Source of the DNA: a virus
DNA length: 64,000 bases
Virus record (IMG/VR): IMGVR_UViG_3300027743_000026
Location: 1-64,000 of that record
Direction: 5' to 3' (one strand)
Of the stretch, positions 13,704 through 45,868 are shown one piece after another; the stretch's first letter is position 1, and the number at the start of each line of letters is the position of its first letter. The notes under the pieces are model-generated. The model worked only from the letters and a program-made list of their open reading frames with translations. It made no database searches and was not told where the DNA came from. The position numbers and the translations under genes were made by a program.

Positions 13704-13745
13704 TTTCAGTCTCCTGGTTTTGAGGCTGCTTCAACAGCCCGGGTT
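13704..13745 (-). promoter_or_regulatory. Leader module copy 1: hairpin plus RBS, no promoter
   Basis: Between two co-directional genes. Read leftward it has GGCTG-TTGAAG-CAGCC (13739-13724) then ACCAGGAGACT before the ATG. It shares hairpin loop and RBS with the other copies but lacks their -35/-10, which points to a role for the hairpin in RNA rather than as a promoter part. Confidence 0.7.
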
Positions 13746-14003
13746 TTAGATGCCTTCTAAGCCATCATTGAGTTCGACGGCGCCGCCGCCCATGCCGGTG
13801 AGCGTCTCGCCCTTGTAGACAAGCTTGCCCTTGGGCGGGTTGAGCAGGCGCCTGCGCTGGGCGAGGAGCTTCTCCAGCTCGCGCGCGGCACGCAGCAGCT
13901 TGCGCTGCCAGCGGTCGATCGCCTCGGCGTTGATGGCGAGCTTGGTCTGGCGCGCCTCGACCTTCATCTCGGGGTGCTTGGGAACAATACGACGACGCTT
14001 CAT
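13746..14003 (-). CDS. Small basic helical protein
   Basis: 85 residues starting MKRRRIVPKHPEMKVEARQT. The start is set by the leader RBS (ACCAGGAG). A long basic helix (RWQRKLLRAARELEKLLAQR) is followed by GKLVYKGETLTGMGGGAVEL. Probably nucleic-acid associated because of charge; no family recognised. Confidence 0.6.
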   Translation of the reverse strand: MKRRRIVPKHPEMKVEARQTKLAINAEAIDRWQRKLLRAARELEKLLAQRRRLLNPPKGKLVYKGETLTGMGGGAVELNDGLEGI

Positions 14004-14086
14004 TTCTAGGCTCCTGGTTGAGGGCCGCTTCAACGGCCCGGCATTTTGTATTCCCATTTGATATACGAGTTCAAACAGAAAGTCAA
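14004..14086 (-). promoter_or_regulatory. Leader module copy 2: promoter, hairpin, RBS
   Basis: Read leftward: -35 TTGACT (14086-14081), 17-base spacer, -10 TATCAA (14063-14058), then stem-loop GGGCCG-TTGAAG-CGGCCC (14039-14022) and ACCAGGAG before ATG 14003. All parts have counterparts at the other module copies. Confidence 0.75.
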
Positions 14087-14090
14087 CAGT

Positions 14091-14345
14091 TTATTTAATC
14101 TCCGCCTTGAGGATCGCTGCCCGGCGCGTGGCGTTGTCCTGGTTGATGCTGCGGTACTCAGCCGCGCTGATCTCGATCGCCGGGACGATCTCGGCGCCCT
14201 TTGCCGCCTTGTAGGCGAGGCCTACCGCACTCGCCCATTGCGCGGCTTTCCAGCCGGGAGAATGAGCATGGCTGTACTTGCGGCCGGCGGTCGATCGCGT
14301 GAACGTCTGGCCGTTTGAGAAGGTTGCCTTGTAGTAGGTAGTCAT
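14091..14345 (-). CDS. Hypothetical small protein
   Basis: 84 residues, MTTYYKATFSNGQTFTRSTA..., with a beta-rich start and helical end (EYRSINQDNATRRAAILKAE). Preceded by its own full leader module. No family recognised. Confidence 0.6.
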   Translation of the reverse strand: MTTYYKATFSNGQTFTRSTAGRKYSHAHSPGWKAAQWASAVGLAYKAAKGAEIVPAIEISAAEYRSINQDNATRRAAILKAEIK

Positions 14346-14428
14346 TTTTCAGTCTCCTGGTTGAGGCCGCTTCAACGGCCTTGCATCTCGTATGCCCATC
14401 TGATATACGCACTCAAATCGGAAGTCAA
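14346..14428 (-). promoter_or_regulatory. Leader module copy 3: promoter, hairpin, RBS
   Basis: Read leftward: TTGACT (14428-14423), 17-base spacer, TATCAG (14405-14400), stem-loop AGGCCG-TTGAAG-CGGCCT (14381-14364), ACCAGGAGACT, ATG 14345. Divergent to the RHH gene that starts at 14449. Confidence 0.75.
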
Positions 14429-14448
14429 GCAGACGAGGAGCCAGGACA

Positions 14449-14667
14449 ATGCCAAGCGGCGGAGCAAGAGAGAAGTCCGGACCGGAGAAACGGTTCGAGG
14501 AACGCATCATGATCAAGCTTTCGACCAAGCTGTTGGGGGCGCTCGACGAGATCACCCGCGATGGCGAGACCCGCAGCGAGGTGATCCGCCGGGCGCTCGA
14601 ACGCGAGGTGACACGGTGCCTCAAGATCCACAGTAAGACTGGCGGCAGGGCGTCGGCGCACCTATAA
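14449..14667 (+). CDS. Ribbon-helix-helix DNA-binding protein
   Basis: 72 residues. IMIKLSTKLLGALDEITRDG followed by ETRSEVIRRALEREV is a CopG/Arc-type ribbon-helix-helix. GAGGAG lies upstream of the ATG. It is transcribed away from leader module copy 3, so autoregulation or control of the module promoters is plausible; that target is inferred. Confidence 0.75.
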   Translation: MPSGGAREKSGPEKRFEERIMIKLSTKLLGALDEITRDGETRSEVIRRALEREVTRCLKIHSKTGGRASAHL

Positions 14668-14746
14668 TCTTCACCAGCGCTGAACGTGGCGGGTTTGCGC
14701 TCCTGGTTCCATCAAAAGAACAGCGAACCCTAACCCATCAGCGACA

Positions 14747-14780
14747 GGCCCTCGGCACGGCTTCAAACGTGCCGGGGGCC
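14747..14780 (+). other. Strong hairpin before the zinc-ribbon gene
   Basis: A 13-bp stem (one T-G pair) closes on GCTTCAAA. It lies 21 bases before the GTG start at 14802 and has no T-run, so a leader structure is more likely than a terminator. The loop holds CTTCAA, the reverse complement of the module loop TTGAAG, and CTCCTGGTT lies upstream on this strand, so it may be a relic of a leftward module. Confidence 0.45.
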
Positions 14781-14801
14781 GCTTCATATTTGGAGGCCGC
14801 T

Positions 14802-15173
14802 GTGCCGACACTGAAACCGCAAATGCCGGCCCCGCTGCAGCGTCCGCACGTCGACCCGGCGCCGCACCTGACCAGCGCCGGCTCCTGCTCTGACTGCGGA
14901 CGCAAAGCCGTCACCGCCGCCGACAATATGCTGGTGTGTCCGGAGTGCTTTGCGCTCTTGCGGCATGAGGATTACACCGCCGAGCTGCGGCGCAAGCAGG
15001 AACTCATCAACCAGAGAATGAAGGAGACCCGCGAGCGCAATCGCCAACTGGACCAGGAACGCAAGGAGCGGATCAGAGACGAGCGCCGGCAAATACAGCA
15101 GATGATCATCGCCGCTGAGGAAAAGCTAAAACCACCTCAGCAGGATAAGCAGCACGAAGATAACGGCCAGTGA
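14802..15173 (+). CDS. Zinc-ribbon coiled-coil protein
   Basis: 123 residues from GTG 14802, chosen because GGAGG lies five bases upstream. CSDCGRK and CPECFAL form a zinc ribbon at about residues 28-52, then a long charged coiled coil (RRKQELINQRMKETRERNRQ...) fills the rest. Probably a nucleic-acid or scaffold protein; function unknown. Confidence 0.65.
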   Translation: MPTLKPQMPAPLQRPHVDPAPHLTSAGSCSDCGRKAVTAADNMLVCPECFALLRHEDYTAELRRKQELINQRMKETRERNRQLDQERKERIRDERRQIQQMIIAAEEKLKPPQQDKQHEDNGQ

Positions 15174-15212
15174 CAGCAGACTGTAAAGCAGCGCCTGCCG
15201 GTGCGAACTCAT
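15126..15212 (-). CDS. Possible 28-residue membrane peptide
   Basis: MSSHRQALLYSLLSLAVIFV followed by LLILLRWF reads as a single membrane helix. It is antisense to the end of the preceding gene and lacks a clear ribosome-binding site, so it may be chance. Confidence 0.3.
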   Translation of the reverse strand: MSSHRQALLYSLLSLAVIFVLLILLRWF

Positions 15213-15337
15213 CAGAAGATCCACACAGTTGCGGGTCGCGGTCGCCGGGGATTACGAAAGACGCCGCGACCCGCACCGCTGATGCTAGAGGACAGCGGTC
15301 TCGTCTGCTTTATTCTCTCGCCGCTGCGGGAGCAAGC

Positions 15338-15556
15338 TCATATCATCCACGCGAAGATCATGATTATCATGATGTAGCTGAGCACGTAGGTGATCGCGTG
15401 CTGCCAGTCGTAGTAGATGAGCGCCCAGATCGCGATGAATACGCCGTAAGAAACCAGCGTCACATCGAGGCGATCAATCTTGAAGCGGCGGTGGCGATAG
15501 ACAACAACGTCGCCCCAATCCCAAAGGGTATTGAGCATTCGCCACCATAGTTTCAC
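15338..15556 (-). CDS. Small membrane protein
   Basis: 72 residues from GTG 15556, with GAGGAG upstream. A soluble start (VKLWWRMLNTLWDWGDVVVY) is followed by two membrane helices (TLVSYGVFIAIWALIYY and AITYVLSYIMIIMIFAWMI). The opposite-strand frame is judged a shadow. Function unknown. Confidence 0.55.
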   Translation of the reverse strand: MKLWWRMLNTLWDWGDVVVYRHRRFKIDRLDVTLVSYGVFIAIWALIYYDWQHAITYVLSYIMIIMIFAWMI

Positions 15557-15665
15557 AGCAAGCTCCTCAACTGGAAGCGGGTCCGGTCGGTCAGAGGTGC
15601 TAAACGTACCGGACCCGCCCCACACAGGCCGTCAAGCTTGGGTGAAATCGACAGCCTGTATTGCC

Positions 15666-16238
15666 TTACGTCGTGCTCTTCTTCTTACGCATCTTGCTGA
15701 GCGCGCCGAGACCGAGGAGGCCAGACGCGAACAGTGCCAATGCGCCGGGGATCGGCACCGGAGTCACAGCGAGATTGCCGCCGTAGCCCGACGTGCCACC
15801 ACCGATGCCGCTCAGCTGGAGATAGTAGCTGCCGGCTTCGAGGATGCCCGCACCAGCCAAGACCTGGCAGCTGGGCTGCAGGATGCAGGCTTGCGCGATC
15901 TCGGGACCAAACCGCAGGATGTCATCGGCCCCACCAAGCGCGCCTACCTGCTGGTACACTGCGCCTTGGAAGTTCGTGATGAAATCCGTGGGCGCGGGGT
16001 AGACATTCGTCGCGCTCGTTATCGTGACGAAAGACGGCGAGCCGACCAGCTGAAACAAAACCTGGTCGGTGAACGCGCCGCCGCCGGTGCCGTTGATGCC
16101 GAGAGTACCGCTGGAGAAATCACCCGTCCGTGAGGTCGGATTGATCCCAAGGTTGTCGACAACAGCAGCGGACGCTGGTGCCATTCCAAATGAGAATAGG
16201 ACAGTGGCCGCCAGTAGTGCTCTCTTCGTTTTGTGCAT
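15666..16238 (-). CDS. Exported protein with VPxxP-CTERM-like sorting tail
   Basis: 190 residues. A signal peptide (MHKTKRALLAATVLFSFGMA, cleavage near ASA) opens it. The end reads VPIPGALALFASGLLGLGAL then SKMRKKKSTT: a VPxP motif, a membrane helix and a basic cluster, the three parts of PEP-CTERM/VPLPA-CTERM signals handled by exosortases. The Gly/Ser/Thr-rich middle contains a cysteine pair (ACILQPSC). Such proteins are rare in phages; the host would have to supply the exosortase. Confidence 0.7.
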   Translation of the reverse strand: MHKTKRALLAATVLFSFGMAPASAAVVDNLGINPTSRTGDFSSGTLGINGTGGGAFTDQVLFQLVGSPSFVTITSATNVYPAPTDFITNFQGAVYQQVGALGGADDILRFGPEIAQACILQPSCQVLAGAGILEAGSYYLQLSGIGGGTSGYGGNLAVTPVPIPGALALFASGLLGLGALSKMRKKKSTT

Positions 16239-16294
16239 ATTTTAGTCTCCATCTGCTGCAACGATGCAGCCGGTTTACGGTAGCGAAGTGTGGA

Positions 16295-16324
16295 CCGCCT
16301 GGGTAGTTGCCGCTCCCCAGGCGG
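16295..16324 (-). promoter_or_regulatory. Inverted repeat and shared leader motif between the two CTERM genes
   Basis: CCGCCTGGG and CCCAGGCGG form a perfect 9-bp stem with a 12-base loop. It contains an 18-base stretch (16301-16318; leftward it reads GGGGAGCGGCAACTACCC) that recurs exactly at 17027-17044 before the other CTERM gene. No T-run follows leftward, so it is not an obvious terminator. Confidence 0.55.
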
Positions 16325-16331
16325 GGTCGTT

Positions 16332-17003
16332 TTAGGCGGTCGCGAGTTCGGCCGCCTTGCGTTTCTTGTCAGCACGTTTCTTCAGCATACCGATACCGAC
16401 CAGGCCAGCCACGAACAAGCCCGCCGGCAGCGGGATCGGCACCAGCTGCGGAATCGCAGCCGCTTCGATTCTGAAGTGCTCGAAGCCAGTGATGTTGCCG
16501 CCTTGATCAAGCAAGACGATGCTGGTGATGACCTCGCCGTCTCGCGTTCCGAATGTGAAGCCGGATTGCGAGTTGTTGATCGCACCGAGCAGGAAGCTCT
16601 GCACAGTTTCCGGGTTGCCATTCGCATCGACGGCAGAGACCAACGCCGTCACGCTGCCGGTGCCACTCAGGGAGAACACTTCCGTGGTGGTGCCGATCAG
16701 GTTACCTTGGGCGTCGAACACCTGAATCCGCAGATTGTTGGTGTTCGCGATCTTGATATCGTTGCCGTTGGCGGCTGCGGTGAAACCAGTTCCCGCAGTA
16801 CATCCACCTAAGCAACTGAAATTAACGAACCCAGTGTGTTGCCCATTGAACGTACCAATGGCAAGGTTGGGCGACAGAGCGTTGAAGATCACGTTGTCGC
16901 CGGTGCCGCTCAGATTGCTCTGAACGAAAACCGCAGCCGATGCCGGCAGTGATGCGAGGGCCGTGCTCGCCAGGAGCGCGGCCGCAAATACAAGTTTGCG
17001 CAT
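16332..17003 (-). CDS. Second exported protein with VPxxP-CTERM-like tail
   Basis: 223 residues from ATG 17003 (GGAAA upstream). Signal peptide MRKLVFAAALLASTALASLP, cleavage near ASA. The beta-rich body has a cysteine pair (CLGGC) near residue 70. The end reads VPIPLPAGLFVAGLVGIGML followed by the basic KKRADKKRKAA, again VPxxP, helix, basic cluster. Body sequence is not obviously similar to 15666-16238, so two different cargo domains share one type of sorting tail. Confidence 0.7.
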   Translation of the reverse strand: MRKLVFAAALLASTALASLPASAAVFVQSNLSGTGDNVIFNALSPNLAIGTFNGQHTGFVNFSCLGGCTAGTGFTAAANGNDIKIANTNNLRIQVFDAQGNLIGTTTEVFSLSGTGSVTALVSAVDANGNPETVQSFLLGAINNSQSGFTFGTRDGEVITSIVLLDQGGNITGFEHFRIEAAAIPQLVPIPLPAGLFVAGLVGIGMLKKRADKKRKAAELATA

Positions 17004-17026
17004 TGAGGTTTCCTTGTCGTGTTGTG

Positions 17027-17044
17027 GGGTAGTTGCCGCTCCCC
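17027..17044 (-). promoter_or_regulatory. Second copy of the CTERM leader motif
   Basis: Exact 18-base match to 16301-16318, here 23 bases before ATG 17003. Leftward it reads GGGGAGCGGCAACTACCC, which can fold with GGG pairing to CCC. Confidence 0.55.
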
Positions 17045-17075
17045 CATGATGCTGCAAGAGCGCAGCGCACTAGCC

Positions 17076-17225
17076 CTAACCAGGGTTACTGCGATGCGTT
17101 CCGGCCAAGGTGACCTTCATCTTCTTGGTACGTTTGGTGAGCATAGCCTTTTTCTGCGCGCGTGGGCTAACGCCGGCCCAGGTCCGGAACTCCGGCAACC
17201 GCGGCGGGCGCTTGCGCTTGTTCAT
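17076..17225 (-). CDS. Small very basic protein
   Basis: 49 residues, MNKRKRPPRLPEFRTWAGVS..., with 14 Lys/Arg. ATGA overlap with the gene upstream (17222-17225) supports it. Possibly nucleic-acid binding; no family recognised. Confidence 0.55.
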   Translation of the reverse strand: MNKRKRPPRLPEFRTWAGVSPRAQKKAMLTKRTKKMKVTLAGTHRSNPG

Positions 17226-17500
17226 GACTCGGATTCGCTTAAAGCTGCCAACTGTCGCAGTGTCCGCTCAATCTCATCGGCGCTGTCTTTCCCGCCTGTT
17301 ATGTGCGCAGTCCACGCTTTTTTGACATGCTGAATCTGGGCTTCGAGTGGAATACCAAGTTGTCTGCACAGTCGAAAGAAGTCTTCGAACATCTGCAGGA
17401 CATTCTCCATGTTTCTCAACTTGTCGGGATCGCCCATCAACTCAAGATGGCGCTCACCGTACTCTCGGAGCAGCTTGAGTTGTTCAGATGTTGGTTTCAT
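17222..17500 (-). CDS. Small helical protein
   Basis: 92 residues, all-helical in pattern (MKPTSEQLKLLREYGERHLE...). ATGA-coupled both sides. No motif recognised. Confidence 0.6.
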   Translation of the reverse strand: MKPTSEQLKLLREYGERHLELMGDPDKLRNMENVLQMFEDFFRLCRQLGIPLEAQIQHVKKAWTAHITGGKDSADEIERTLRQLAALSESES

Positions 17501-17775: not shown

Positions 17776-17777
17776 TT

Positions 17778-19281: not shown

Positions 19282-19287
19282 TTCAGT

Positions 19288-19560: not shown

Positions 19561-19585
19561 TACGCTCCCCGTAAACAAAGGGCGA

Positions 19586-19613: not shown

Positions 19614-19617
19614 GCGC

Positions 19618-36924: not shown

Positions 36925-36999
36925 TTCACAGATTTCGCTTGGCATTCATGGATTTTGCATTCATGGATTTCGCAAACAAATAAATCACAGTTTTCGCAA
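36925..36999 (+). repeat. Direct-repeat cluster A (four copies)
   Basis: Four degenerate copies of TTCATGGATTTCGCAAA at about 36925, 36945, 36960 and 36984, upstream of a 63-residue gene. The same motif forms cluster B at 37206-37289. Confidence 0.65.
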
Positions 37000-37020
37000 T
37001 TCAATTGGGGAAATTGGGTG

Positions 37021-37212
37021 ATGGATCTGGCGTTGACCGAGGGCCCTACCGGCGGGGCGATCGCGCACCGGGCCGATTGTCCGCAAGTTCGCGCGCTGGC
37101 GGCCGCGGGCCAGCCAGTCATGACGATGCTCGGTTGCGAGAAGCCGCTGCCTGACGACGTGCCGCGGCATTCCTGCCTTGGGCCCGAGCAATCTGACTTG
37201 TTCGATTCATAG
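37021..37212 (+). CDS. Small protein between two repeat clusters
   Basis: 63 residues from ATG 37021. GGAIAHRADCPQVRALAAAG then VMTMLGCEKPLPDDVPRHSC has three cysteines and two histidines, a possible metal site. It is bracketed by repeat clusters A and B, so it may be a regulator or replication factor acting on them, but that is a guess. Confidence 0.5.
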   Translation: MDLALTEGPTGGAIAHRADCPQVRALAAAGQPVMTMLGCEKPLPDDVPRHSCLGPEQSDLFDS

Positions 37213-37289
37213 TTTTCGCAAATTCACAGATTTCGCAAATTCATGGATTTCGCAAATTCATGGATTTCGCAATTCATAGATTTCGCTTA
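37206..37289 (+). repeat. Direct-repeat cluster B (five tandem copies)
   Basis: TTCATAGTTTTCGCAAA, TTCACAGATTTCGCAAA, TTCATGGATTTCGCAAA, a 16-base version and TTCATAGATTTCGCTTA run head to tail, period 17. There are no spacers of varied sequence, so this is not CRISPR. Best seen as iterons or an operator array. A further partial match (TTTCGCAAAC) lies at 37802. Confidence 0.75.
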
Positions 37290-37396: not shown

Positions 37397-37687
37397 CTAG
37401 GTCTTGTCGGGCACACGCACGAAGTCGGCTTTGGGCTTCGAGCTGGCGTTCTTCGGGCCCCAGCCTTTGCGCACCAGGCACTCGGCGCGGTAGGTGTTCC
37501 AGGCCGCGAGCCCAGGCGTGGCCTTGCGCTCGGCGCTCTCGCGCCACTCGGCGCCGCAGGTCCGCATCACGTCCGTGAACGTGATCTTGGGTGCGGCGGG
37601 CGCGGCGGTCGGCGCCGGTGCCTCCTGCCCGGCGGCGGTGCCGAGCGAGAGCGCGACCAGGGCGGCCGCGAGGATGGTTTGTCGCAT
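37397..37687 (-). CDS. Small periplasmic protein
   Basis: 96 residues with a signal peptide (MRQTILAAALVALSLGTAAG) and a Pro/Ala-rich linker, then CGAEWRESAERKATPGLAAW and ECLVRKGW. Two cysteines may pair. The tail resembles small rhizobial periplasmic proteins related to PsiF, but weakly. Transcribed from a class I module-type promoter without the standard hairpin. Confidence 0.55.
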   Translation of the reverse strand: MRQTILAAALVALSLGTAAGQEAPAPTAAPAAPKITFTDVMRTCGAEWRESAERKATPGLAAWNTYRAECLVRKGWGPKNASSKPKADFVRVPDKT

Positions 37688-37794
37688 GGTGTCGGTTTCC
37701 TTTTCGGTTCGGTTCGGTTGTCGGGGTCCGGACCATCCGGCGCCCTCTGTCGTTTCAGTATTGATAACGTATGCCTAGGTTCAAAAAGAGTCAA
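37688..37794 (-). promoter_or_regulatory. Variant leader module: related promoter, different hairpin
   Basis: TTGACT (37794-37789) is followed by TTTGAACCTAGGCATACG-like sequence as in the class I modules, but the spacing is two bases shorter, so the -10 may be TACGTT (37771-37766). The leader hairpin is CCGGA-TGG-TCCGG (37740-37728), without a TTGAAG loop or ACCAGGAG. Confidence 0.55.
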
Positions 37795-37935: not shown

Positions 37936-38325
37936 TTAGTCTTGTTCTGTTAGCCCGTCGCAAAAGTCGCGCGTTACCGCCTCAAGTTCACCGTCGGTCG
38001 GTTCGACCGTTGAATAAACTACGGCTAGTAGTTTTTCGATCACGACATAGGCGGGTCGCAATGCTTCGGGCAAGGTGTCGCGGGCTTCGGTATGGTCCAT
38101 TAGGTCGCCCAGATTATCTTCGCTGCAAACGTCGACCGTAAACGCTGCGCGAACCTCCGAAGGCGCCGCAACCGCGGCCGCGATAGTCGCATCAATTGCC
38201 GCGTCGGTCGCGGTACACTCCGCCGCATCGGCAATTGACCAGCAACCGGCGCCGTATGGTTCAGCTGAAAATGCGGGCGCCGCAAACGCAAACGCCGCAA
38301 CGGTAGCAAGTAGAATCCGTCTCAT
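37936..38325 (-). CDS. Small periplasmic protein
   Basis: 129 residues; signal peptide MRRILLATVAAFAFAAPAFS. The mature chain is Ala/Thr-rich and acidic with four cysteines (GCW, AEC, VDVC, DFC), which could form two disulfides. Last gene before the leftward terminator. Function unknown. Confidence 0.6.
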   Translation of the reverse strand: MRRILLATVAAFAFAAPAFSAEPYGAGCWSIADAAECTATDAAIDATIAAAVAAPSEVRAAFTVDVCSEDNLGDLMDHTEARDTLPEALRPAYVVIEKLLAVVYSTVEPTDGELEAVTRDFCDGLTEQD

Positions 38326-38357
38326 AGGGTAGTCCTTTCATTTTCCGTTCTGGTGTC

Positions 38358-38395
38358 CGGCAGAATTGCCGATCATGGCGCCCGCGGGCGCCATG
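38358..38395 (-). promoter_or_regulatory. Two hairpins including a perfect 22-base palindrome
   Basis: 38374-38395 is a perfect palindrome (core GGCGCCCGCGGGCGCC). Next to it CGGCA-ATTC-TGCCG and GACACCAG read leftward toward ATG 38325, resembling a drifted leader module without the TTGAAG loop. Confidence 0.5.
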
Positions 38396-38410
38396 CGCTG
38401 CAATTCGGCT

Positions 38411-38590: not shown

Positions 38591-38594
38591 TGTC

Positions 38595-38780
38595 CTATCT
38601 CTCGATTTTGTTTGTTTCCGGGTGCCATTCCGACTTTATGACGGGGTCACCTATCGAGTCGGTTTCGTCCGTGTCTTCGGTTTCGCAATCATAATCCCAT
38701 AGTTCGACTATGACTCCGGGCGGTATGTTCTGAATCTCTTGAACAACGCCACCCGACACGATAATTCGAATCCGGTTCAT
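38595..38780 (-). CDS. Small acidic protein
   Basis: 61 residues, MNRIRIIVSGGVVQEIQNIP then a very acidic middle (CETEDTDETD). ATGA overlap with the Gp88-like gene. The MNRIRIIVSGGVVQEI start resembles short phage proteins of unknown role. Confidence 0.6.
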   Translation of the reverse strand: MNRIRIIVSGGVVQEIQNIPPGVIVELWDYDCETEDTDETDSIGDPVIKSEWHPETNKIER

Positions 38781-39571
38781 GCTGCATTCTCCCGCACAAC
38801 AAACCCGGACCGATCGCGCTTTGCCTTGTTTCCCTTGGGCGAAAGCCATACCACGACGTTTGCGGGGTCCAGGTGTCGCAAGTCGTGTTCGTCACCGTCG
38901 ATTGTGCGGTATCCGTTCCATTGCTTGGGGCGCGGCAATGCTGACACCACAGCAACGTTGCGGCCCTCCTGCAAAAGCTCGATGGCTTGCGCGTCGTTTT
39001 CTTCCGAGCGCGAAAACGTCAAGTAGTAGTTTGCTGGCAATGCGCGCTTGAACCGGCGCGCGCTTTTCGTGTAGTCGACAAATTGCACCGCGGGAAACGC
39101 GCTAAAGATAGTATGGGCGCCCGGCGTTACAGTGTGGCCGCTGATCGCGCTCAATTCTGCGGCGAATTCCGGCGTCACCATCACGCGCAAGCCTTCGTAT
39201 GCGATATCGGTCGACCCGTTCGGCCGCAACACAAGCTTGACGCGCTTGCGCTTTGCGGTGCGAATTGCCGCGGCGCTGTGGCGTAGCATTTCGAGCATGT
39301 AGGCTTGTCGGTCGCGCATGAAGTAGCGCGCCTTGCGTTCGCGAGAATCGCGGACCGAATTAGTCCAATCGGTCGCGGCCGATACCATCGAAGCTTGACC
39401 GGATTCGCGGCCAAGGCAAAGCGCAATGCAACCCGGACTAGCATCGGGGCACAAATTGCCGACCCCGGCGGATTCATGCGGCGCCATGTAGTTAATTCCG
39501 TTCAGGTAACGGAACTTTGCCGCTTTGATAGCCTTGGGGCTATCGAACGAATAAAAGCGCTTGAATTGCAT
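38777..39571 (-). CDS. Gp88-family phage protein
   Basis: 264 residues from ATG 39571. LCPDASPGCIALCLG holds the three conserved cysteines of the Gp88 family, and KLVLRPNGSTDIAYEGLRV plus later YYLTFSRSEEND match its body. Function of the family is unknown; a metal or iron-sulfur site is possible. Behind leader module copy 4. Confidence 0.7.
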   Translation of the reverse strand: MQFKRFYSFDSPKAIKAAKFRYLNGINYMAPHESAGVGNLCPDASPGCIALCLGRESGQASMVSAATDWTNSVRDSRERKARYFMRDRQAYMLEMLRHSAAAIRTAKRKRVKLVLRPNGSTDIAYEGLRVMVTPEFAAELSAISGHTVTPGAHTIFSAFPAVQFVDYTKSARRFKRALPANYYLTFSRSEENDAQAIELLQEGRNVAVVSALPRPKQWNGYRTIDGDEHDLRHLDPANVVVWLSPKGNKAKRDRSGFVVRENAA

Positions 39572-39661
39572 TTTAGTCTCTCCTGGTGTTCCGAGCGGCT
39601 TCAACCGCCCTTCTGAACATTAGTCGCTAATACGTATGCCTAGGTTCAAAAGAAAATGCAA
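39572..39661 (-). promoter_or_regulatory. Leader module copy 4: promoter, hairpin, RBS
   Basis: Leftward: TTGCAT (39661-39656), 17-base spacer, CATACG (39638-39633), stem-loop GGGCGG-TTGAAG-CCGCTC (39610-39593), ACCAGGAG, ATG 39571. In the transcript the second stem pair is G-U; on the other strand it would be A-C, which favours an RNA structure made by leftward transcription. Confidence 0.8.
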
Positions 39662-39720: not shown

Positions 39721-40233
39721 TCAGATTCTGGTGATACATTCAGGGCCGAATCCCTGGTGAACCGAAGTCGGGACCGTAAGCTTGCGACCACAGCGGCCGC
39801 ATTTTCCTTCCGTCCATATTTCGAGCTGATCGGGCAAGCGGCCGCGAACCAAGGCGCGCCATGTCCAATCGAAGGCTTTAGCGGAGGGCGCGTCGCGGGA
39901 AACGTCACCGGGGCGTGGAACCTTGCGACCGAGCCAAAAAATGTCGCGCGAAATGCGACCTAAATATTTGTAGTCGGATTCGTTGTTTTGTCCGACCAAA
40001 AGCCCGACAAAATGACAAAGCCCGTCGTCGCTAACGGAAATGCGATAGGTGAACCGGGCGCCGGTTTTCTTGCTTGCGAGCGTAAATGTTGCGTTACCAG
40101 CGCGCAAGAATTTGAGCGCGTCGGGCGCCGTCGTGAGCTGTCCGCGCATATCGGCGCCCTTGGCGGGCGCGGGGTCCGCGTCAAGGTTTATATCGTGATC
40201 CAAGCCCGCGAAAATGTCAGAGTGATTGCACAT
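39721..40233 (-). CDS. DUF6011-type zinc-ribbon protein
   Basis: 170 residues. The C-terminus KCGRCGRKLTVPTSVHQGFG followed by PEC is the DUF6011-like cysteine motif. The N-terminal part (PDALKFLRAGNATFTLASKK then TGARFTYRISV) recurs with it in phage proteins. Function unknown. Single-gene unit with its own module and terminator. Confidence 0.7.
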   Translation of the reverse strand: MCNHSDIFAGLDHDINLDADPAPAKGADMRGQLTTAPDALKFLRAGNATFTLASKKTGARFTYRISVSDDGLCHFVGLLVGQNNESDYKYLGRISRDIFWLGRKVPRPGDVSRDAPSAKAFDWTWRALVRGRLPDQLEIWTEGKCGRCGRKLTVPTSVHQGFGPECITRI

Positions 40234-40324
40234 TGCTTGAGTCTCCTGGTGTTGCGAGCGGCTTCAACCGCCCTTCTGAACATTAGTCGTTAATATGTAT
40301 GCCTAGGTTCAAAGGAAGAGTCAA
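40234..40324 (-). promoter_or_regulatory. Leader module copy 5: promoter, hairpin, RBS
   Basis: Leftward: TTGACT (40324-40319), 17-base spacer, CATACA (40301-40296), stem-loop GGGCGG-TTGAAG-CCGCTC (40273-40256), ACCAGGAGACT, ATG 40233. Confidence 0.8.
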
Positions 40325-40326
40325 AT

Positions 40327-40354
40327 AAAAAAGGCGCCCCGCCCGCGGGGCGCC
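40327..40354 (-). terminator. Leftward (possibly two-way) terminator
   Basis: GGCGCCCCG-CGGG-CGGGGCGCC with six T following leftward and TTTT rightward, after the stop at 40373. Confidence 0.8.
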
Positions 40355-40372
40355 TTTTCGGAGTGATCCGGA

Positions 40373-40978
40373 TCAGGATCGGGGCGGGCGCGCGTTGCGG
40401 CCCTTCGGGGTAACGGCGCCCGCCTTGTTCAGAAGGCCTTTACTGATCAGCGAATCCTTGGCCGCTTGCCATTGCTCGCGGGTCGGGAATTGCGGCGTTG
40501 AGTCGTCGCGGCGCCAAGGATATTCCGCTTGAGTCTTGGCCATGGTGTAACGGTCTTGACCGTTATAGCTCGACTTGAACGAACACGTTGCGCTTAACAC
40601 AATCGACTCGTGTTCGCTCAATTCCGGCGCCGGCGCCGGTAACAGGGCCGCGGCGTTGTCCGGGTGCACGTAGAACGTCAATCCCATATCCTTGCCGCAA
40701 AAGAGCGAGTGTTCGACTACGGCAAAGCCGGGCTTTAGCGTAATGTGCTGATCCTTGCGCGACGAATCCCATGGCGCCGACATATTGTCGGACGCGGCGA
40801 TAGCGTCACCAGTAGCGAGCTGAACAAACCGAAACGTGTTGCGGGTACCGCCGGACCATAGACCAGCGTCCGAAGGAATCGTGACTTGCGTCACCACGAC
40901 AGCCTTAAACTTTTTGCCCGTGTATCCGCCGCGCAATTGCGCGGGAATCATCGCGGCGTCTAGATAGATTGCGTTCAT
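40373..40978 (-). CDS. Unknown phage accessory protein
   Basis: 201 residues from ATG 40978, MNAIYLDAAMIPAQLRGGYT... . A beta-rich first half (VTQVTIPSDAGLWSGGTRNT) and a helical C-terminus (TREQWQAAKDSLISKGLLNK) that resembles a small winged-helix. Own module and terminator. Function unknown. Confidence 0.6.
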   Translation of the reverse strand: MNAIYLDAAMIPAQLRGGYTGKKFKAVVVTQVTIPSDAGLWSGGTRNTFRFVQLATGDAIAASDNMSAPWDSSRKDQHITLKPGFAVVEHSLFCGKDMGLTFYVHPDNAAALLPAPAPELSEHESIVLSATCSFKSSYNGQDRYTMAKTQAEYPWRRDDSTPQFPTREQWQAAKDSLISKGLLNKAGAVTPKGRNARPPRS

Positions 40979-41068
40979 GTCGGAGTCTCCTGGTGTTGCG
41001 AGCGGCTTCAACCGCCCTTCTGAACATTAGTCGTCAATACGTATGCCTAGGTTCAAAGGAAGAGTCAA
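40979..41068 (-). promoter_or_regulatory. Leader module copy 6: promoter, hairpin, RBS
   Basis: Leftward: TTGACT (41068-41063), 17-base spacer, CATACG (41045-41040), stem-loop GGGCGG-TTGAAG-CCGCTC (41017-41000), ACCAGGAGACT, ATG 40978. Confidence 0.8.
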
Positions 41069-41069
41069 C

Positions 41070-41285
41070 TTATTTTCGCATCAATCCAATCGAGACACGG
41101 TCGCGGGCGATAAACCGAGCGGCGCCCACATCGGCCAATATTTCGTCGCGCGCGTTCCACCATGCAAAGCGCTTATTTGGCGCCGCGACATAGTAGCAGC
41201 GGGATTCGCGGATCGTGGTTCCGTCGGGCTTATCCCAATGCAGAGTCACGCGCCATTGTCGGACCGTCGGAATATTGCGGGACAT
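41070..41285 (-). CDS. Small hypothetical protein
   Basis: 71 residues from ATG 41285, overlapping the stop of the gene upstream (TAATG). RQWRVTLHWDKPDGTTIRES then RCYYVAAPNKRFAWWNAR, beta-rich and basic. No family recognised. Confidence 0.6.
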   Translation of the reverse strand: MSRNIPTVRQWRVTLHWDKPDGTTIRESRCYYVAAPNKRFAWWNARDEILADVGAARFIARDRVSIGLMRK

Positions 41286-41758
41286 TAGCGAGCCCTCGCA
41301 AACGTCTTGACCTGATCGCGGGTAATTTCCCAAGGCGCGTCATATTTTGGCACCATACGAATCGCCTCGGTGCGAATTGCCTCGATAATCTTGCAAGCAA
41401 CCGACTCTTCATAGTCGTTAGTCTCGCAAGCCTGATAATCGAAACAAGAGCAACCGCTAAGGATCAGCCCGACAAGCTTGTGTTGCGGCAAAGACTCGAG
41501 CCCTGCAAACGGGCTGAACTTATAGGACGCGACCGACTCGCCCTCGCGACCGGGCGCCGTTTCCTCGGTTTCGTTTGGATAACGGTTCAGAACCGAGCGA
41601 AGATTCTCGCCTAGCAAGATTCGACCGGTTTCGGTCGCGTTGTCGCTGGTGATATCGATGCAACGGGCGGGACCGTCGACGAAATAGCGCAAGCGCTGCG
41701 ACACCGCGAAAGTCACAAGCGCGTCAATATGATCGTGCGAGACAACAAAAGCAGACAT
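41285..41758 (-). CDS. Conserved phage/plasmid accessory protein
   Basis: 157 residues. MSAFVVSHDHIDALVTFAVS ... LGENLRSVLNRYPNE ... CSCFDYQACETNDYEESVAC. This opening and the LGxxLxxxNxxSxxxRY-like pattern recur in uncharacterised proteins of phages and plasmids. Possibly an anti-host factor; unproven. Behind leader copy 7. Confidence 0.65.
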   Translation of the reverse strand: MSAFVVSHDHIDALVTFAVSQRLRYFVDGPARCIDITSDNATETGRILLGENLRSVLNRYPNETEETAPGREGESVASYKFSPFAGLESLPQHKLVGLILSGCSCFDYQACETNDYEESVACKIIEAIRTEAIRMVPKYDAPWEITRDQVKTFARAR

Positions 41759-41800
41759 TGGGATTCTCCTGGTGTTTGCGGCTTCAACCGCGGTTGAGAC
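41759..41800 (-). promoter_or_regulatory. Leader module copy 7: hairpin plus RBS, no promoter
   Basis: Between two genes of one operon. GCGG-TTGAAG-CCGC (41791-41778) then ACCAGGAGAAT before ATG 41758. As at copy 1, hairpin and RBS are kept where the promoter is absent. Confidence 0.75.
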
Positions 41801-41944
41801 TTAGGCGAGGGCGAGCGCGACCGCGCGCAAGCCCATCTGGCGGATGGCGTACCGGTCCGCGCGCATGACGCAAAACGAGACCTGAAAGCGGCCGAGTCGG
41901 ATAAACCGGATTCCGCCGACGCGCTTGTTAGAGTAGTTGAACAT
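41801..41944 (-). CDS. Small basic protein
   Basis: 47 residues, MFNYSNKRVGGIRFIRLGRF then QVSFCVMRADRYAIRQMGLR. Strongly basic. First gene of its operon, behind leader copy 8, so likely expressed. No family recognised. Confidence 0.6.
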   Translation of the reverse strand: MFNYSNKRVGGIRFIRLGRFQVSFCVMRADRYAIRQMGLRAVALALA

Positions 41945-42031
41945 TTTCCGTCTCCTGGTTCCGAGCGGCTTCAACCGCCCTTCTGAACATTAGTCGTTAA
42001 TACGTATGCCTAGGTTCAAAAGGAAATGCAA
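41945..42031 (-). promoter_or_regulatory. Leader module copy 8: promoter, hairpin, RBS
   Basis: Leftward: TTGCAT (42031-42026), 17-base spacer, CATACG (42008-42003), stem-loop GGGCGG-TTGAAG-CCGCTC (41980-41963), ACCAGGAGAC, ATG 41944. Rightmost module of the 37-42 kb block, pointing away from the terminase genes. Confidence 0.8.
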
Positions 42032-42199
42032 GAAAATTCGACACCTGGAATCAAATTAAATAGACTAGGATTCAAAGTCGGAGGGCCCGGAACCGGGCTC
42101 GGTTCAGGGCAAGGGCCCGAAAAACCAGGGCTTGAACGGTACCCGACTACCAAATGACGGGCCGACTCGCCGGAACAAAACTAAATTAGCAGGCTAATA

Positions 42200-42769
42200 A
42201 TGCCGAAGGGCGGAATTCGCGCGGGCGCCGGGCGCCCCAAGGGCTCGGGAAAAGGCCATCGGGTCGTGGTCGAGAATCCCGACGGGCTCATGCCTATCGA
42301 ATGGATGCTAGCGGTTATGCGCGACCCGCTAACCGAGCCGTTACGCCGCGACCGGATGGCGGAAATAGCGGCGCCCTATCTGCATTCGAGACTCGCCGCG
42401 GTGTCCGTTACTGGTGAAGTGAAGGGCAGCACGTCAAACACCACAAACAACACGGTTAACATCTTTGCGGTGCCGCGCGGCGCCGCAGTGAATCTCAAAG
42501 ATGGAACGGTCGAAGTCGAAGGCATTGCGACCACGGACCTAGCAGCGCTTGAACCGTTCGAAGGCACACCCGCGCTCCCGGATCAGAGCGACGCGAATCG
42601 GGGCACGCAACCACCCAAGGGCCCGTTGCCCGTGCACGGTGTCGACACTAGCAACGTAACACGACTCAAGCGACCTGGTGAACCGGGCGCCATGGTGCAA
42701 CGGGTATTTGATGCGCTCGACAAGCGCGACACCAGCGACACTGGCAACACCAGCGACTCGAGCGCGTGA
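42200..42769 (+). CDS. Terminase small subunit-like protein
   Basis: 189 residues. GGIRAGAGRPKGSGKGHRVV at the start is a small-terminase-like DNA-binding opening, followed by PIEWMLAVMRDPLTEPLRRD and RMAEIAAPYLHSRLA, the conserved helical block of this phage family. The C-terminus is disordered. It recognises phage DNA for packaging together with the large subunit at 43977. Confidence 0.75.
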   Translation: MPKGGIRAGAGRPKGSGKGHRVVVENPDGLMPIEWMLAVMRDPLTEPLRRDRMAEIAAPYLHSRLAAVSVTGEVKGSTSNTTNNTVNIFAVPRGAAVNLKDGTVEVEGIATTDLAALEPFEGTPALPDQSDANRGTQPPKGPLPVHGVDTSNVTRLKRPGEPGAMVQRVFDALDKRDTSDTGNTSDSSA

Positions 42770-43112
42770 ACCAGGGCCCGCGCCGGGGCTCGCGGCCGCT
42801 CGGCAATGCACTAAGCCGCATGCCATAAGGCTAATGCGCGCCTAGCGGGCGGTACACTAAGCCGCCCGACGGGCGCCCGGCGCCGTCGGCAGTATGGTCC
42901 CCAGTATGGGCAGGATAGCGCGGGCGCCAGATAGTCCAGTAATATCAATGGGGCGACGCGGACACACTATCCGCGCCTAGCAGAAGCTATTCTGAAACCC
43001 GTTAGCTAAAAGCGTCGAAATTTGGGGGCGGCACGCCCTCTCTATGGTTTTCAAGCTTTTGATTTTTGCGGAGTTTTTGCAAAAAATTTTTTCCCGCGTA
43101 GGAATAAAATCA
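42770..43112. other. Non-coding gap with direct repeats, candidate packaging site
   Basis: 343 bases without a convincing gene. CACTAAGCCGC occurs at 42809-42819 and 42855-42865; CAGTATGG occurs at 42890-42897 and 42902-42909; GCGGA...TCCGC forms a small hairpin near 42960. An AT-rich run precedes the next gene. A position next to terminase small suits a pac or cos site. Confidence 0.5.
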
Positions 43113-43394
43113 ATGCGCCTACCGATACCCGACGACTGCGGCCGCGCTGCCCGAGAGCTGATTGCGCACGGCCTGGACCCGAACGAGCACCTTGAGTTCA
43201 TGCGCGGCGACGAGGTCAGCCTCCACGGCACCGCCCGCGCCTTCGCCACCCGCACCGTGGTCGAGACCCCGAACGGTCCCCGTCACGCGCCCTACCGGCC
43301 CTTCGATCGCACGGCAATGGTGCGTCTGGGCCTGGTGGTAGACCCGCCGGTGCGGCGAAAGCGCCGGCCGGCAAGATTGATCGTCCAGGACTGA
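43113..43394 (+). CDS. Small hypothetical protein
   Basis: 93 residues from ATG 43113 (AGGA upstream), MRLPIPDDCGRAARELIAHG... . A mixed fold with GDEVSLHGTARAFATRTVVE and a basic end. Lies between the terminase subunits; no motif recognised. Confidence 0.55.
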   Translation: MRLPIPDDCGRAARELIAHGLDPNEHLEFMRGDEVSLHGTARAFATRTVVETPNGPRHAPYRPFDRTAMVRLGLVVDPPVRRKRRPARLIVQD

Positions 43395-43432
43395 AAACGC
43401 ACGTACGGGCTCCTCGTCGCCTCGGGAACGCA

Positions 43433-43651
43433 ATGCCTTCAAATGCGGAGAAACGGGCCCTGATTGCGACCGCCCTGAACGAGGCGCTGGCCACACGGGT
43501 GATCCGGCTGTTTGAGGCGCTGTGTTCGGCAGAGAACATAGAGCTGGGGTTGATCCGGTTTAGTGAAGGAATGACCCAGGCTATGGAAGCCTACGAGGCA
43601 GCGAATGACCCCAATGCCCCGTGGTGCGGCGGCCGCCGGCTGGACGTGTAA
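43433..43651 (+). CDS. Small helical protein
   Basis: 72 residues, helical (ALIATALNEALATRVIRLFE), ending GGRRLDV. Overlaps the next start by one base (TAATG). Function unknown. Confidence 0.55.
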   Translation: MPSNAEKRALIATALNEALATRVIRLFEALCSAENIELGLIRFSEGMTQAMEAYEAANDPNAPWCGGRRLDV

Positions 43652-43974
43652 TGCGGTTCCGGCCGGCGGACGACCCACGCAACACCGTCGATGACATCCC
43701 CGGGGTCACCACCGACAAGACCGAGCCCGGGACGCCGGTGGAATGGGAGGATAATTTTCTCTCCAACACCTTCGCCTGGGCCAGCTACCGGCTGGTCCCG
43801 GATTGGTGCCAGACCCCGGAGCACTTCACTTCGCGGTTCACGCAATACCTCTTTACCGACTGTCCCTGCTGCCTGTTCTGGCGCGGATTGACCTTTGGCT
43901 ACGTGGTCGGCGGCGTTGTCGGGGCCATCGTCGGCATGATCGTGATGTGGTTGGGTGCGCAATGGTTGCACTAG
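43651..43974 (+). CDS. Small membrane protein before terminase large
   Basis: 107 residues from ATG 43651. A soluble N-terminus with a cysteine cluster (CPCC) is followed by one glycine-rich membrane helix at the end (GYVVGGVVGAIVGMIVMWLG). Unusual product for a packaging operon; role unknown. Confidence 0.55.
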   Translation: MRFRPADDPRNTVDDIPGVTTDKTEPGTPVEWEDNFLSNTFAWASYRLVPDWCQTPEHFTSRFTQYLFTDCPCCLFWRGLTFGYVVGGVVGAIVGMIVMWLGAQWLH

Positions 43975-43976
43975 TG

Positions 43977-45182
43977 ATGGGCGAGAACTTCACCCGCACG
44001 CTGTTCGCCAAGAACGTGCGACACAAGGCCCTGTATGGCGGCCGCGGCTCCGGCAAGACCTGGTCGATCGGCTCCTACCTGGTCTACACCGCCAACACCG
44101 AAAGGAAGCGCATCATCTGCGCCCGGCAGTTTCAGAACTCGATCCGGGACAGCTCCAAGGATCTGATCGAGCGCCGCATCCGCGACTTCGAGCTGGACCG
44201 CGAATTCAGTCTGACCGACCGCGCCATCACCCATCGCAAGACCGGCTCGGAGTTCTTGTTCATCGGGCTCGAGCGCAACATCGAGAGCATCCGTAGCTTG
44301 GAAGGCGCCGACATCGTGTGGATCGACGAGGCCCGCACCATCTCCAACCGCTCGATGGAGATTCTGCTGCCCACCGTGCGGGCGCCCGGCTCGCAGCTGA
44401 TCTGGTCCTGGAATCCTGAGGATCCTCTGGACCCGGTCGACGCCTATTTCCGCGCCGGCAAGCCACCGCCCAATTCGGTGATCACGTTCGTCGACTACAA
44501 CGACAATCCGTACTTCAAGCACACCACTTTGCCGCACGAGATGGAGGTCCTAAAACGCGGAAATTTCAACAGATATCGCCATGTTTGGCTGGGAGAATAC
44601 GATTTATCGTACGATTCCAAGGTATTTTCCAACATTCGCGTCGGCCGCATCGACGTGCCCTACGAAACTCCGCCGCTCTACGGCATGGACTTCGGTTTCG
44701 GCAAGGATCCGAGCTTCGTGGTCAAGTGCTATCACCTGGAGAAGACCAAACAGATTTTCATCGCCGCTGAGGCCACCGGCAGAGTTGCCTTGGACATGCT
44801 GCCGGCGATGTTGCGCACCGTGATCGCCGACGATGGCGACCTGGTGAAGGCCGACGCCTCACAGCCTGGCACCATCGAGTTTTTGCAGGCGCGCGGCTTC
44901 AATATCCACGCCGCCAACAAGGGACCAGGCTCGGTCAAGAGTGGCATCAACTTCCTGCAGGGCTACGAGATCGTCATCGACCCGAATTGCGAGGCGATGC
45001 GCGAGGAAGCCCGCCTTTACAGCTGGATGACCGACAAGCTCACTGGCAGAGTTCTCTCCGCCCCGGTCGACGCCTACAATCACGGTTGGGACGCCGTGCG
45101 CTACGCCACTGAGTCAGCCCAGGTCGAAAGCGCCATGGAAGGCAACAGTAACGGCGGCGTGATGTCGCTGAAGATATGGTGA
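43977..45182 (+). CDS. terL: Terminase large subunit
   Basis: 401 residues if it starts at ATG 43977; ATG 43962 and GTG 43974 are also possible. GGRGSGKT (about 26) is Walker A and DIVWIDEA (about 115) Walker B of the packaging ATPase; GMDFGFGKDPS and ADASQP with AYNHGWDAVRYA give the acidic residues of the C-terminal RNase H-like nuclease. Terminase_3-like family. Packages DNA into the prohead. Confidence 0.9.
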   Translation: MGENFTRTLFAKNVRHKALYGGRGSGKTWSIGSYLVYTANTERKRIICARQFQNSIRDSSKDLIERRIRDFELDREFSLTDRAITHRKTGSEFLFIGLERNIESIRSLEGADIVWIDEARTISNRSMEILLPTVRAPGSQLIWSWNPEDPLDPVDAYFRAGKPPPNSVITFVDYNDNPYFKHTTLPHEMEVLKRGNFNRYRHVWLGEYDLSYDSKVFSNIRVGRIDVPYETPPLYGMDFGFGKDPSFVVKCYHLEKTKQIFIAAEATGRVALDMLPAMLRTVIADDGDLVKADASQPGTIEFLQARGFNIHAANKGPGSVKSGINFLQGYEIVIDPNCEAMREEARLYSWMTDKLTGRVLSAPVDAYNHGWDAVRYATESAQVESAMEGNSNGGVMSLKIW

Positions 45183-45523
45183 GCGGCTCGGGTCAACCGC
45201 TCCTTGGTCTCTCGACTCGACGCTTTGGTGCCTGCTTTCCCTGCGTCTTGGGAGCGTCCGTGGAGCACCTTCGGACCTGAATGCGCGCGTTGACGACCTT
45301 GAACGGAAGATACCATCCTCGCGAGAGAACCGCAGGTCGCCTTTCTGAACTCCGAGCCGCGCGCTACCCGAAGGAAAATGCCCTCGCGAGGTAGTTAGTA
45401 ATGTTCGATCACCGCCTGGCAAGCCGTAACTTCTACACCAGCCGGCGCCACTGGCCGGGATTATCGGCGCGGGAGTGGCCGAGCCGCTGGCGGACACCGG
45501 ACGGCCATGCCGGTGACTTCAGC
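45183..45523. other. Non-coding gap after terminase
   Basis: 341 bases. GAGCGG...CCGCTC right after the terminase stop makes a small hairpin (about 45182-45203). Short frames exist but none has a ribosome-binding site or a recognisable product. Confidence 0.5.
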
Positions 45524-45793
45524 TCACCATCGCCGCCTTCGTCTGATGATGTAGCCACCGTAGCCGTAGCCGCCGCGCCATCCGCACAGACCCTGAATAA
45601 ACCCGATGATGCAGACGCCGAGCAGTGGCCACCGCATGCTGAGGATGACCAAGGAGAAAATGGTGGTGGCGGTGATGATCCAGGCCATTCCCTCGCCAAA
45701 GCTGGCTTGGTCACGCGGCGCGGTGAAGATGAACAGCAGAACGACTGCCATCCAGACTAAGGAAAAGATTTCAGATTTACTGAGCGGACGCAT
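45524..45793 (-). CDS. Leftward membrane protein inside the late region
   Basis: 89 residues with two or three membrane helices (LVWMAVVLLFIFTA; AWIITATTIFSLVIL; PLLGVCIIGFIQGL) and an Arg-rich end. It is the only leftward gene in the packaging/head region and carries a full leader module, so it belongs to the accessory regulon rather than the late operon. Confidence 0.65.
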   Translation of the reverse strand: MRPLSKSEIFSLVWMAVVLLFIFTAPRDQASFGEGMAWIITATTIFSLVILSMRWPLLGVCIIGFIQGLCGWRGGYGYGGYIIRRRRRW

Positions 45794-45868
45794 AATTTAG
45801 TTCTCCTGGTTGGGCTGCTTCATCAGCCGGTATGGTTAGTTGATATACGGGTTCAAAGAGGATTGCAA
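45794..45868 (-). promoter_or_regulatory. Leader module copy 9: promoter, hairpin, RBS
   Basis: Leftward: TTGCAA (45868-45863), 17-base spacer, TATCAA (45845-45840), stem-loop GGCTG-ATGAAG-CAGCC (45828-45813), ACCAGGAGAAC, ATG 45793. The first loop base differs (A for T) while the stem stays complementary. It is about 4 kb from the nearest other copy. Confidence 0.75.

What the first reader, a model, noticed from the sequence alone, without database searches (positions are those of the whole stretch)
13704..45868. A dispersed phage regulon of near-identical promoter-hairpin-RBS leader modules
Nine leftward genes in three places (13.7-14.4, 39.6-42.0, 45.8 kb) share ACCAGGAG plus a stem-loop with loop TTGAAG (ATGAAG once). 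Stems covary: GGCTG/CAGCC, GGGCCG/CGGCCC, AGGCCG/CGGCCT, GGGCGG/CCGCTC. Seven have a promoter (TTGACT/TTGCAW, 17 bases, TATCAR or CATACR); two inside operons keep hairpin and RBS without promoter. A G-U pair that would be A-C on the other strand favours an RNA element. Modules mark small accessory genes, including one leftward gene inside the late region, so they look like mobile expression cassettes or one regulon.
Basis: partly seen in the sequence, partly recalled or inferred. Interest (0 to 1): 0.8.

Follow-up and report, generated by a model that had tools for sequence, protein, structure and literature searches.

The report
Phage gene leaders with loop-coded hairpins
A virus of bacteria, known only from metagenome sequence, puts the same small RNA hairpin with an almost unchanging loop about 20 bases in front of nine accessory genes; its close relatives do the same, and more distant viruses use the same layout with a different loop of their own, so this looks like a real but undescribed kind of gene-start signal.

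Summary
Nine leftward genes carry a hairpin (loop TTGAAG, once ATGAAG) followed 4-8 nt later by CAGGAG. Seven have a promoter with a 17-nt spacer; an eighth promoter copy (37771-37794) lacks the hairpin. A covariance model from the nine copies finds exactly nine in the 72-kb record and recovers copies in six relatives (E <= 6e-5). Four of six stem pairs covary (0/500 shuffles) and G-U far exceeds A-C: a sense-strand RNA element.

Beyond the finding: at two addresses the leader stays while the gene changes; one relative lacks exactly the m1 unit; in relative L016 the hairpin of one promoterless gene is stem I of a type II hammerhead ribozyme. More distant phages sharing one of the genes use the same layout with their own loop (CTAGCA, CTGCAAA, TGGC, TTGCC) and covarying stems. 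In 57 of 63 such leaders the hairpin ends 17-24 nt before the start codon, against 16% of hairpins at other genes.

Best reading: a 5'-proximal mRNA leader, exposed by a promoter or by ribozyme cleavage, that protects the message and aids initiation, its loop read by an unknown factor. Closest known: mycobacteriophage SAS/ESAS, which lacks RNA-pairing support. Mechanism untested.

The parts
13723..13740 (-). m1 hairpin GGGCTG[TTGAAG]CAGCCT (no promoter; 250-aa DUF2786/DUF7168 gene 12951-13703); unit absent from the same site in relative L230
13711..13718 (-). m1 ACCAGGAG ribosome-binding site
14022..14039 (-). m2 hairpin GGGCCG[TTGAAG]CGGCCC before 85-aa gene 13746-14003
14058..14086 (-). m2 promoter TTGACT-N17-TATCAA with TTTGAAC in spacer
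14364..14381 (-). m3 hairpin AGGCCG[TTGAAG]CGGCCT before 84-aa gene 14091-14345
14400..14428 (-). m3 promoter TTGACT-N17-TATCAG
39593..39610 (-). m4 hairpin GGGCGG[TTGAAG]CCGCTC before Gp88-family gene 38777-39571
39633..39661 (-). m4 promoter TTGCAT-N17-CATACG
40256..40273 (-). m5 hairpin before DUF6011 gene 39721-40233 (followed by a terminator-like site 39717-39690)
40296..40324 (-). m5 promoter TTGACT-N17-CATACA
41000..41017 (-). m6 hairpin before 201-aa gene 40373-40978 (followed by a terminator-like site 40344-40332)
41040..41068 (-). m6 promoter TTGACT-N17-CATACG
41778..41791 (-). m7 hairpin GCGG[TTGAAG]CCGC (no promoter) before 157-aa gene 41285-41758; in relative L016 the same hairpin is stem I of a hammerhead ribozyme
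41963..41980 (-). m8 hairpin before 47-aa gene 41801-41944; unrelated gene behind the same leader in L014
42003..42031 (-). m8 promoter TTGCAT-N17-CATACG
45813..45828 (-). m9 hairpin GGCTG[ATGAAG]CAGCC before 89-aa gene 45524-45793 inside the late region; unrelated gene behind the same leader in L014, L009, L020
45840..45868 (-). m9 promoter TTGCAA-N17-TATCAA
37771..37794 (-). additional promoter copy (TTGACT-N15-CATACG with TTTGAACCTAGG) whose leader lacks the TTGAAG hairpin and CAGGAG; precedes a small gene starting near 37687 with a signal-peptide-like N terminus

Best explanation
Each module is a cis-acting 5' mRNA leader. A promoter (seven window genes) or, in a relative, self-cleavage by a hammerhead ribozyme places a short stable hairpin near the 5' end of the mRNA. 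The hairpin ends 17-24 nt before the start codon, near the upstream edge of an initiating 30S ribosome, and leaves the strong CAGGAG site free. I infer that it shields the message from 5'-end-dependent decay and supports initiation, and that the loop, kept while the stem drifts by paired changes, is read by a phage- or host-encoded factor, so that each phage lineage has its own loop code for its accessory genes. Shown here: RNA structure under selection, constant geometry, near-invariant loop, lineage-specific loops, SD free in predicted folds, ribozyme adjacency in relatives, leader retained while genes are swapped. Inferred: transcript starts, stabilisation, the trans factor.
For: Covariation: 4 of 6 pairs change on both sides, score 0.472 against 0.140 shuffled, 0/500; slid registers 0.133 or lower. 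TGGC-loop phages: 36/36 cells paired, null maximum 32. Sense-strand RNA: G-U 40 against A-C 6. Geometry: 57/63 leaders of five loop families end 17-24 nt before the start codon, against 16% of hairpins at other genes. SD mostly outside the hairpin in folds. Lineage loops CTGCAAA, CTAGCA, TGGC, TTGCC before other SD sequences in records that lack the window's motif. Type II hammerheads upstream of leaders in relatives: 17 with complete core, 0 in the reversed control, Rfam E 0.001-0.024. In L016 the TTGAAG hairpin is stem I, so the predicted cut leaves the hairpin at the new 5' end. Model R1 recovers relatives.
Against: No transcript data. The window itself has no hammerhead, and m1 and m7 have neither promoter nor ribozyme nearby, so their hairpins may be internal. 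In the TGGC phages the cut lies roughly 40-50 nt upstream of the leader hairpin, so the hairpin would not be strictly terminal. Loop conservation could partly reflect recent duplication: only nine distinct hairpins stand behind, several of them related. Three of the other loop families rest on one or two contigs with 5-8 leaders each. No candidate loop-binding factor was found. All Rfam hammerhead matches are below the gathering score.
Confidence: 0.5

Rival explanations
1. Passive insulator: any stable hairpin at this distance would do (it blocks decay and keeps upstream RNA from pairing with the SD); the loop is conserved only because leaders were copied and homogenised within a lineage.
For: Window leaders m4, m5, m6, m8 are near-identical over about 75 nt; more distant phages use different loops with the same geometry; the UGAA loop is a known rRNA tetraloop with a solved structure (PMC5311481).
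Against: Stems have diverged by paired changes while the loop stayed, the reverse of what homogenisation alone predicts; the other loops are not known ultrastable tetraloops and do not drift to GNRA or UNCG within a lineage.
Confidence: 0.3
2. Recombination linker: the leaders are short homologous adapters selected because they let accessory genes be swapped in and out (moron-like cassettes); effects on expression are secondary.
For: Same leader with unrelated genes at the m8 and m9 addresses, and a 32%-identity protein at m4; precise absence of the m1 unit in L230; two units end in terminator-like sites.
Against: Linkers need DNA identity, not paired changes in the stem or a fixed 17-24 nt distance to the start codon; between phages the leader does not accompany the gene.
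Confidence: 0.12
3. Translational operator: a phage protein binds the loop and represses these genes as a set, in the manner of phage coat-protein or RegA control.
For: Conserved loop beside the SD and shared by a dispersed gene set.
Against: The hairpin ends 4-8 nt before the SD and does not include it in predicted folds, unlike operators that overlap the initiation site; no repressor candidate identified.
Confidence: 0.1
4. Single-stranded DNA hairpin promoter like those of the phage N4 virion RNA polymerase.
For: Short hairpins with GAAG-C at the tip at several genes (N4 comparison from memory).
Against: G-U pairs kept in the stem would be A-C in the other strand; sigma70-like promoters upstream of seven copies; the longest window ORF that reads as a gene is 773 aa, far too short for a virion RNA polymerase. 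The Pfam RNA polymerase search had silent controls and tells nothing.
Confidence: 0.02

Closest known systems
Start-Associated Sequences (SAS) and extended SAS of Cluster K mycobacteriophages (PMC3203893), with a similar pair in Microbacterium Cluster EF phages (PMC7302621)
   Same: Repeated, unusually conserved ribosome-binding-site elements before a subset of mostly non-structural genes, about half with inverted repeats just upstream; consensus differs between subclusters; function unknown.
   Different: The authors report little support for RNA pairing of the ESAS repeats and favour DNA-binding sites; here pairing is supported by covariation. No sequence similarity of motifs; no ribozymes or dedicated promoters mentioned in the passages read.
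Type II hammerhead ribozymes flanking single genes in prophages (PMC3088659)
   Same: Short catalytic RNAs repeated between phage genes, proposed there to cut long transcripts into gene-length mRNAs; found here just upstream of leader hairpins in relatives.
   Different: The window has none; the passages read do not describe a repeated loop-conserved leader hairpin or its use as ribozyme stem I.
Phage morons (promoter-gene-terminator insertions; from general knowledge)
   Same: Small accessory genes with their own promoter and terminator-like site, one placed against the late direction.
   Different: Here a standard structured leader is shared by many units and stays when the gene changes.
5'-terminal stabilising hairpins such as the ompA leader (from general knowledge)
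   Same: Hairpin near the mRNA 5' end with a free SD.
   Different: Repeated across a gene set with a conserved lineage-specific loop.

Membership tests
SAS/ESAS of mycobacteriophages | Conserved 13-bp GGGATAGGAGCCC-type sequence at the ribosome-binding site | tested here: not met
   Window uses ACCAGGAG(A); different sequence
SAS/ESAS of mycobacteriophages | Placement directly before start codons of a subset of non-structural genes, in one orientation | tested here: met
   All nine on the minus strand before small or accessory genes
SAS/ESAS of mycobacteriophages | 17-bp inverted repeats without RNA-pairing support | tested here: not met
   4-6 bp stem around a 6-nt loop with covariation
Type II hammerhead ribozyme (window modules) | GAAA, UH and CUGANGA core with three stems | tested here: not met
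   No match in the window
Type II hammerhead ribozyme (L016 2662-2720, same gene as m7) | GAAA, UH and CUGANGA core with three stems | tested here: met
   Core and stems complete; Rfam Hammerhead_II 27.4 bits, E 0.024, below gathering score 37
Type II hammerhead ribozyme (L016 2662-2720, same gene as m7) | Self-cleavage | not testable with these tools
   Needs in vitro transcription
Any Rfam 15 family (window modules) | Score above gathering threshold | tested here: not met
   0 matches in the window
N4-type DNA hairpin promoter | Symmetric pairing in DNA and a very large virion RNA polymerase | tested here: not met
   G-U rich in the sense strand only; no ORF above 773 aa in the window
Moron | Own promoter, gene and terminator as a unit | tested here: inconclusive
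   m5 and m6 have promoter and terminator-like sites; terminator-like counts in the region are near shuffled expectation overall

The most novel reading that the evidence does not exclude
A general phage strategy: each lineage marks its accessory genes with a leader hairpin carrying its own loop code, recognised by a lineage-specific factor. New mRNA 5' ends next to these hairpins are made either by promoters or by small ribozymes (hammerheads and perhaps still unidentified ones in the same slot), so that swapped-in genes are adopted into the phage's RNA-level programme.
Probability: 0.3. Interest if true: 0.82.

Novelty: new variant of a known kind. Interest (0 to 1): 0.64.

Why it matters
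Phages constantly trade small genes of unknown function, and how a newly acquired gene gets expressed at the right level is unclear. A standard, structured start signal kept by the genome while genes change would be one answer. It would give a sequence handle for finding accessory (host-takeover, anti-defence) genes in uncultured phages, and it would give a role to hammerhead ribozymes that sit between phage genes without known purpose.

Tried and rejected
Rfam on the window: nothing at gathering score; permissive hits look like chance. Exact-pattern scan of 84,980 bacterial and archaeal genomes: 45 hits; only one had a stem of at least 4 bp and it lies in sequence that reads like coding DNA, so none is accepted. 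Nucleotide search of cultured phages with 39-46.4 kb: no match. TerL relatives at 65-68% identity: no modules; one (L025) uses other promoters and leaders. m1 protein search in viral contigs: none confirmed. The first hammerhead script had a pairing error and printed nothing; corrected. Generic repeated-leader screen: positive for G019, G020, G021, G023 but not decisive for the window. A loop-to-downstream pseudoknot (GUUGA with UCAAC in m2 and m3) was considered and dropped because other copies and other phages do not keep it (reading). RNA polymerase family search uninformative, controls silent. Cultured phage Lo5R7ANS, the first 50 kb of Milano, and an environmental podovirus showed no comparable repeated leaders. 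Two later viral scans returned mostly chance matches plus one true new relative, L230.
Full report
WHERE IT IS. The window is bases 1-64000 of a 72,469-base IMG/VR virus record. It carries a DNA polymerase, helicase, primase-like protein, RecE-like exonuclease, portal, major head and tail genes and a terminase large subunit at 43977-45182, so it is a tailed phage. The host is not known. Cultured relatives by TerL are distant: Synechococcus phage 54%, Agrobacterium phage Milano 44%.

THE OBSERVATION. Nine hairpin-SD copies lie on the minus strand exactly as reported, with zero expected by chance for the combined pattern. Seven have a -35/-10 pair with a 17-nt spacer and a conserved TTTGA(A/G) in the spacer. 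An eighth promoter copy at 37785 has a 15-nt spacer and another leader, so promoter and hairpin are separable: seven genes have both, two only the hairpin, one only the promoter. The genes are small or accessory: DUF2786/DUF7168, Gp88, DUF6011 and unknowns. Two units end in terminator-like sites.

RECURRENCE. Covariance model R1, built only from the nine window copies, finds exactly nine in the 72-kb record. In relatives it finds G002/L014 (8), L012 (4), L016 (4, plus a fifth at E 0.0055), G001/L009 (2) and L020 (1) at E <= 6e-5, while the next match in about 1.1 Mb is 0.13. L230 adds two at E below 1e-9 (in front of the homologues of the m2 and m3 genes). In one search two further loci (L221, L226) score E about 5e-9 to 9e-9, but they read as internal to other sequence and came from a scan for this very pattern, so I do not count them. 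TerL relatives at 65-68% lack the module. No bacterial genome in the exact-pattern scan has an accepted copy. The module is thus confined, as far as seen, to one narrow phage lineage.

RNA. On 21 hairpins (9 distinct), four of six pairs change on both sides; covariation 0.472 against 0.140 in shuffles, 0/500, and at most 0.133 in slid registers. L016 has GGGCGA[TTGAAG]TCGCTC, a G-C to A-U change beside the loop. With G-U and A-C both allowed, G-U outnumber A-C 40 to 6 over all families (copies not independent). The fold leaves the SD mostly unpaired.

LEADER STAYS, GENE CHANGES. At the m9 address the window has an 89-aa gene, and L014, L009 and L020 have an unrelated 80-92-aa gene behind the same leader. 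At m8, the window and L016 share a 47-aa gene while L014 and L012 have an unrelated 98-aa gene. At m4 the protein is 92% identical in L016 but only about 32% identical in L014. At m1, relative L230 has the flanking coding sequence at high identity but lacks the hairpin-SD unit. For the gene at 38325, the window has no such hairpin, L014 has CGGGCTT[TTGAA]GGGCCCG, and L016 has a hammerhead.

OTHER PHAGES, OTHER LOOPS. Homologues of the m7 protein occur in 43 viral loci. None of 20 of these records tested has the window's motif, but several have their own repeated leader: loop CTGCAAA before AACCAAACGGAG (G014), CTAGCA before GGAGTCTACA (G019), (A/T)TGGC before GCGAGGA (G016, G020, G021, G023), TTGCC before CAAGGA (G012, G013). 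Stems covary: TGGC 36/36 cells, no shuffle above 32; CTGCAAA p 0.013; CTAGCA p 0.05. The leader therefore belongs to the genome, not to the gene. Other records with a homologue, for example G017, G025 and G027, showed no such repeated leader in the screen, so this is not universal.

GEOMETRY. Across the five loop families 57 of 63 hairpins end 17-24 nt before the start codon. Among 268 hairpins at other genes of the same contigs, 16% do. The members are partly related, so the binomial value printed there is not a true probability, but the contrast is large and is seen in each family. That distance is close to the upstream edge of an initiating ribosome (general knowledge).

HAMMERHEADS. Seventeen type II hammerheads with complete core were found in 24 contigs and none in the reversed control (G020 and G021 are near-duplicates, so fewer are independent, and the one in G015 has no stem II by the script's count). 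Rfam supports those tested at E 0.001-0.024, below its gathering score. Many lie just upstream of a leader hairpin. In L016, at the gene corresponding to m7, the TTGAAG hairpin is stem I itself, so cleavage would leave UGCGG[UUGAAG]CCGCA at the 5' end, followed by CCAGGAG and the gene. The window's m7 lacks the ribozyme core. Published work found type II hammerheads flanking single prophage genes and suggested that they cut long transcripts into gene-length mRNAs (PMC3088659). The present data suggest what the cut may be for: exposing a leader hairpin near the new 5' end. This is inference.

MECHANISM. I favour a 5'-proximal leader that stabilises the mRNA and aids initiation, with the loop read by a factor (0.5). 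The main rival is a passive hairpin with the loop conserved by descent (0.3). Linker and repressor readings are less likely; a DNA-hairpin promoter is very unlikely.

KNOWN OR NEW. The nearest described system is SAS/ESAS (PMC3203893; PMC7302621). It shares placement and gene class, but its authors found little support for RNA pairing, and the sequences differ; membership is not claimed. Searches of the open-access library found no description of lineage-specific loop hairpins before phage SDs; closed-access papers were not searchable. I file it as a new variant of a known kind.

LIMITS. Relatives are metagenomic fragments, independent covariation events are few, host and transcripts are unknown, and no factor is identified.

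Noticed in passing
window 38350-38410 (-); also G002 3876, G016 14095, G020 43116 and 43743, L123 2421: A conserved structured element, TGATTGCAG...[hairpin]...ATCGGCGGCAATCA-N-GCCG, with a covarying 7-bp outer stem (for example GAATTGC/GCAATTC, GGATTGC/GCAATCC). It occupies the same slot upstream of leader hairpins as hammerheads and matched nothing in the Rfam searches run; possibly another ribozyme.
   Followed up: partly
G016 12576, G020 45555, G023 12048: A second unidentified conserved element (GCAATATTACCGGAACC core) directly before TGGC leader hairpins.
   Followed up: no
L204 (Mesorhizobium phage Cp1R7A-A1): A cultured phage with about 11 copies of a promoter-like sequence plus leader GTCAACGCAAACGGAG before small genes, including a relative of the m7 gene, but without a clear hairpin.
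   Followed up: partly
window 36959-37272: Tandem and dispersed repeats GAATTTGCGAAATCCATGAA downstream of the leftward block, possibly iterons.
   Followed up: no
window 12517-12954 (-): The gene after m1's gene encodes HELAH, a zinc-metalloprotease-like motif (seen).
   Followed up: no
G019 (L115) 11.4-18.1 kb: CTAGCA leaders are often preceded by a second, longer repeated hairpin block (TACTAAGCG ... CGCGTCATAGTGTTC) of unknown role.
   Followed up: no
L106 4477-4564 (-), L110 2586-2661 (-): Sub-threshold matches to antitoxin RNA PtaRNA1 (E 0.0006 and 0.07).
   Followed up: no
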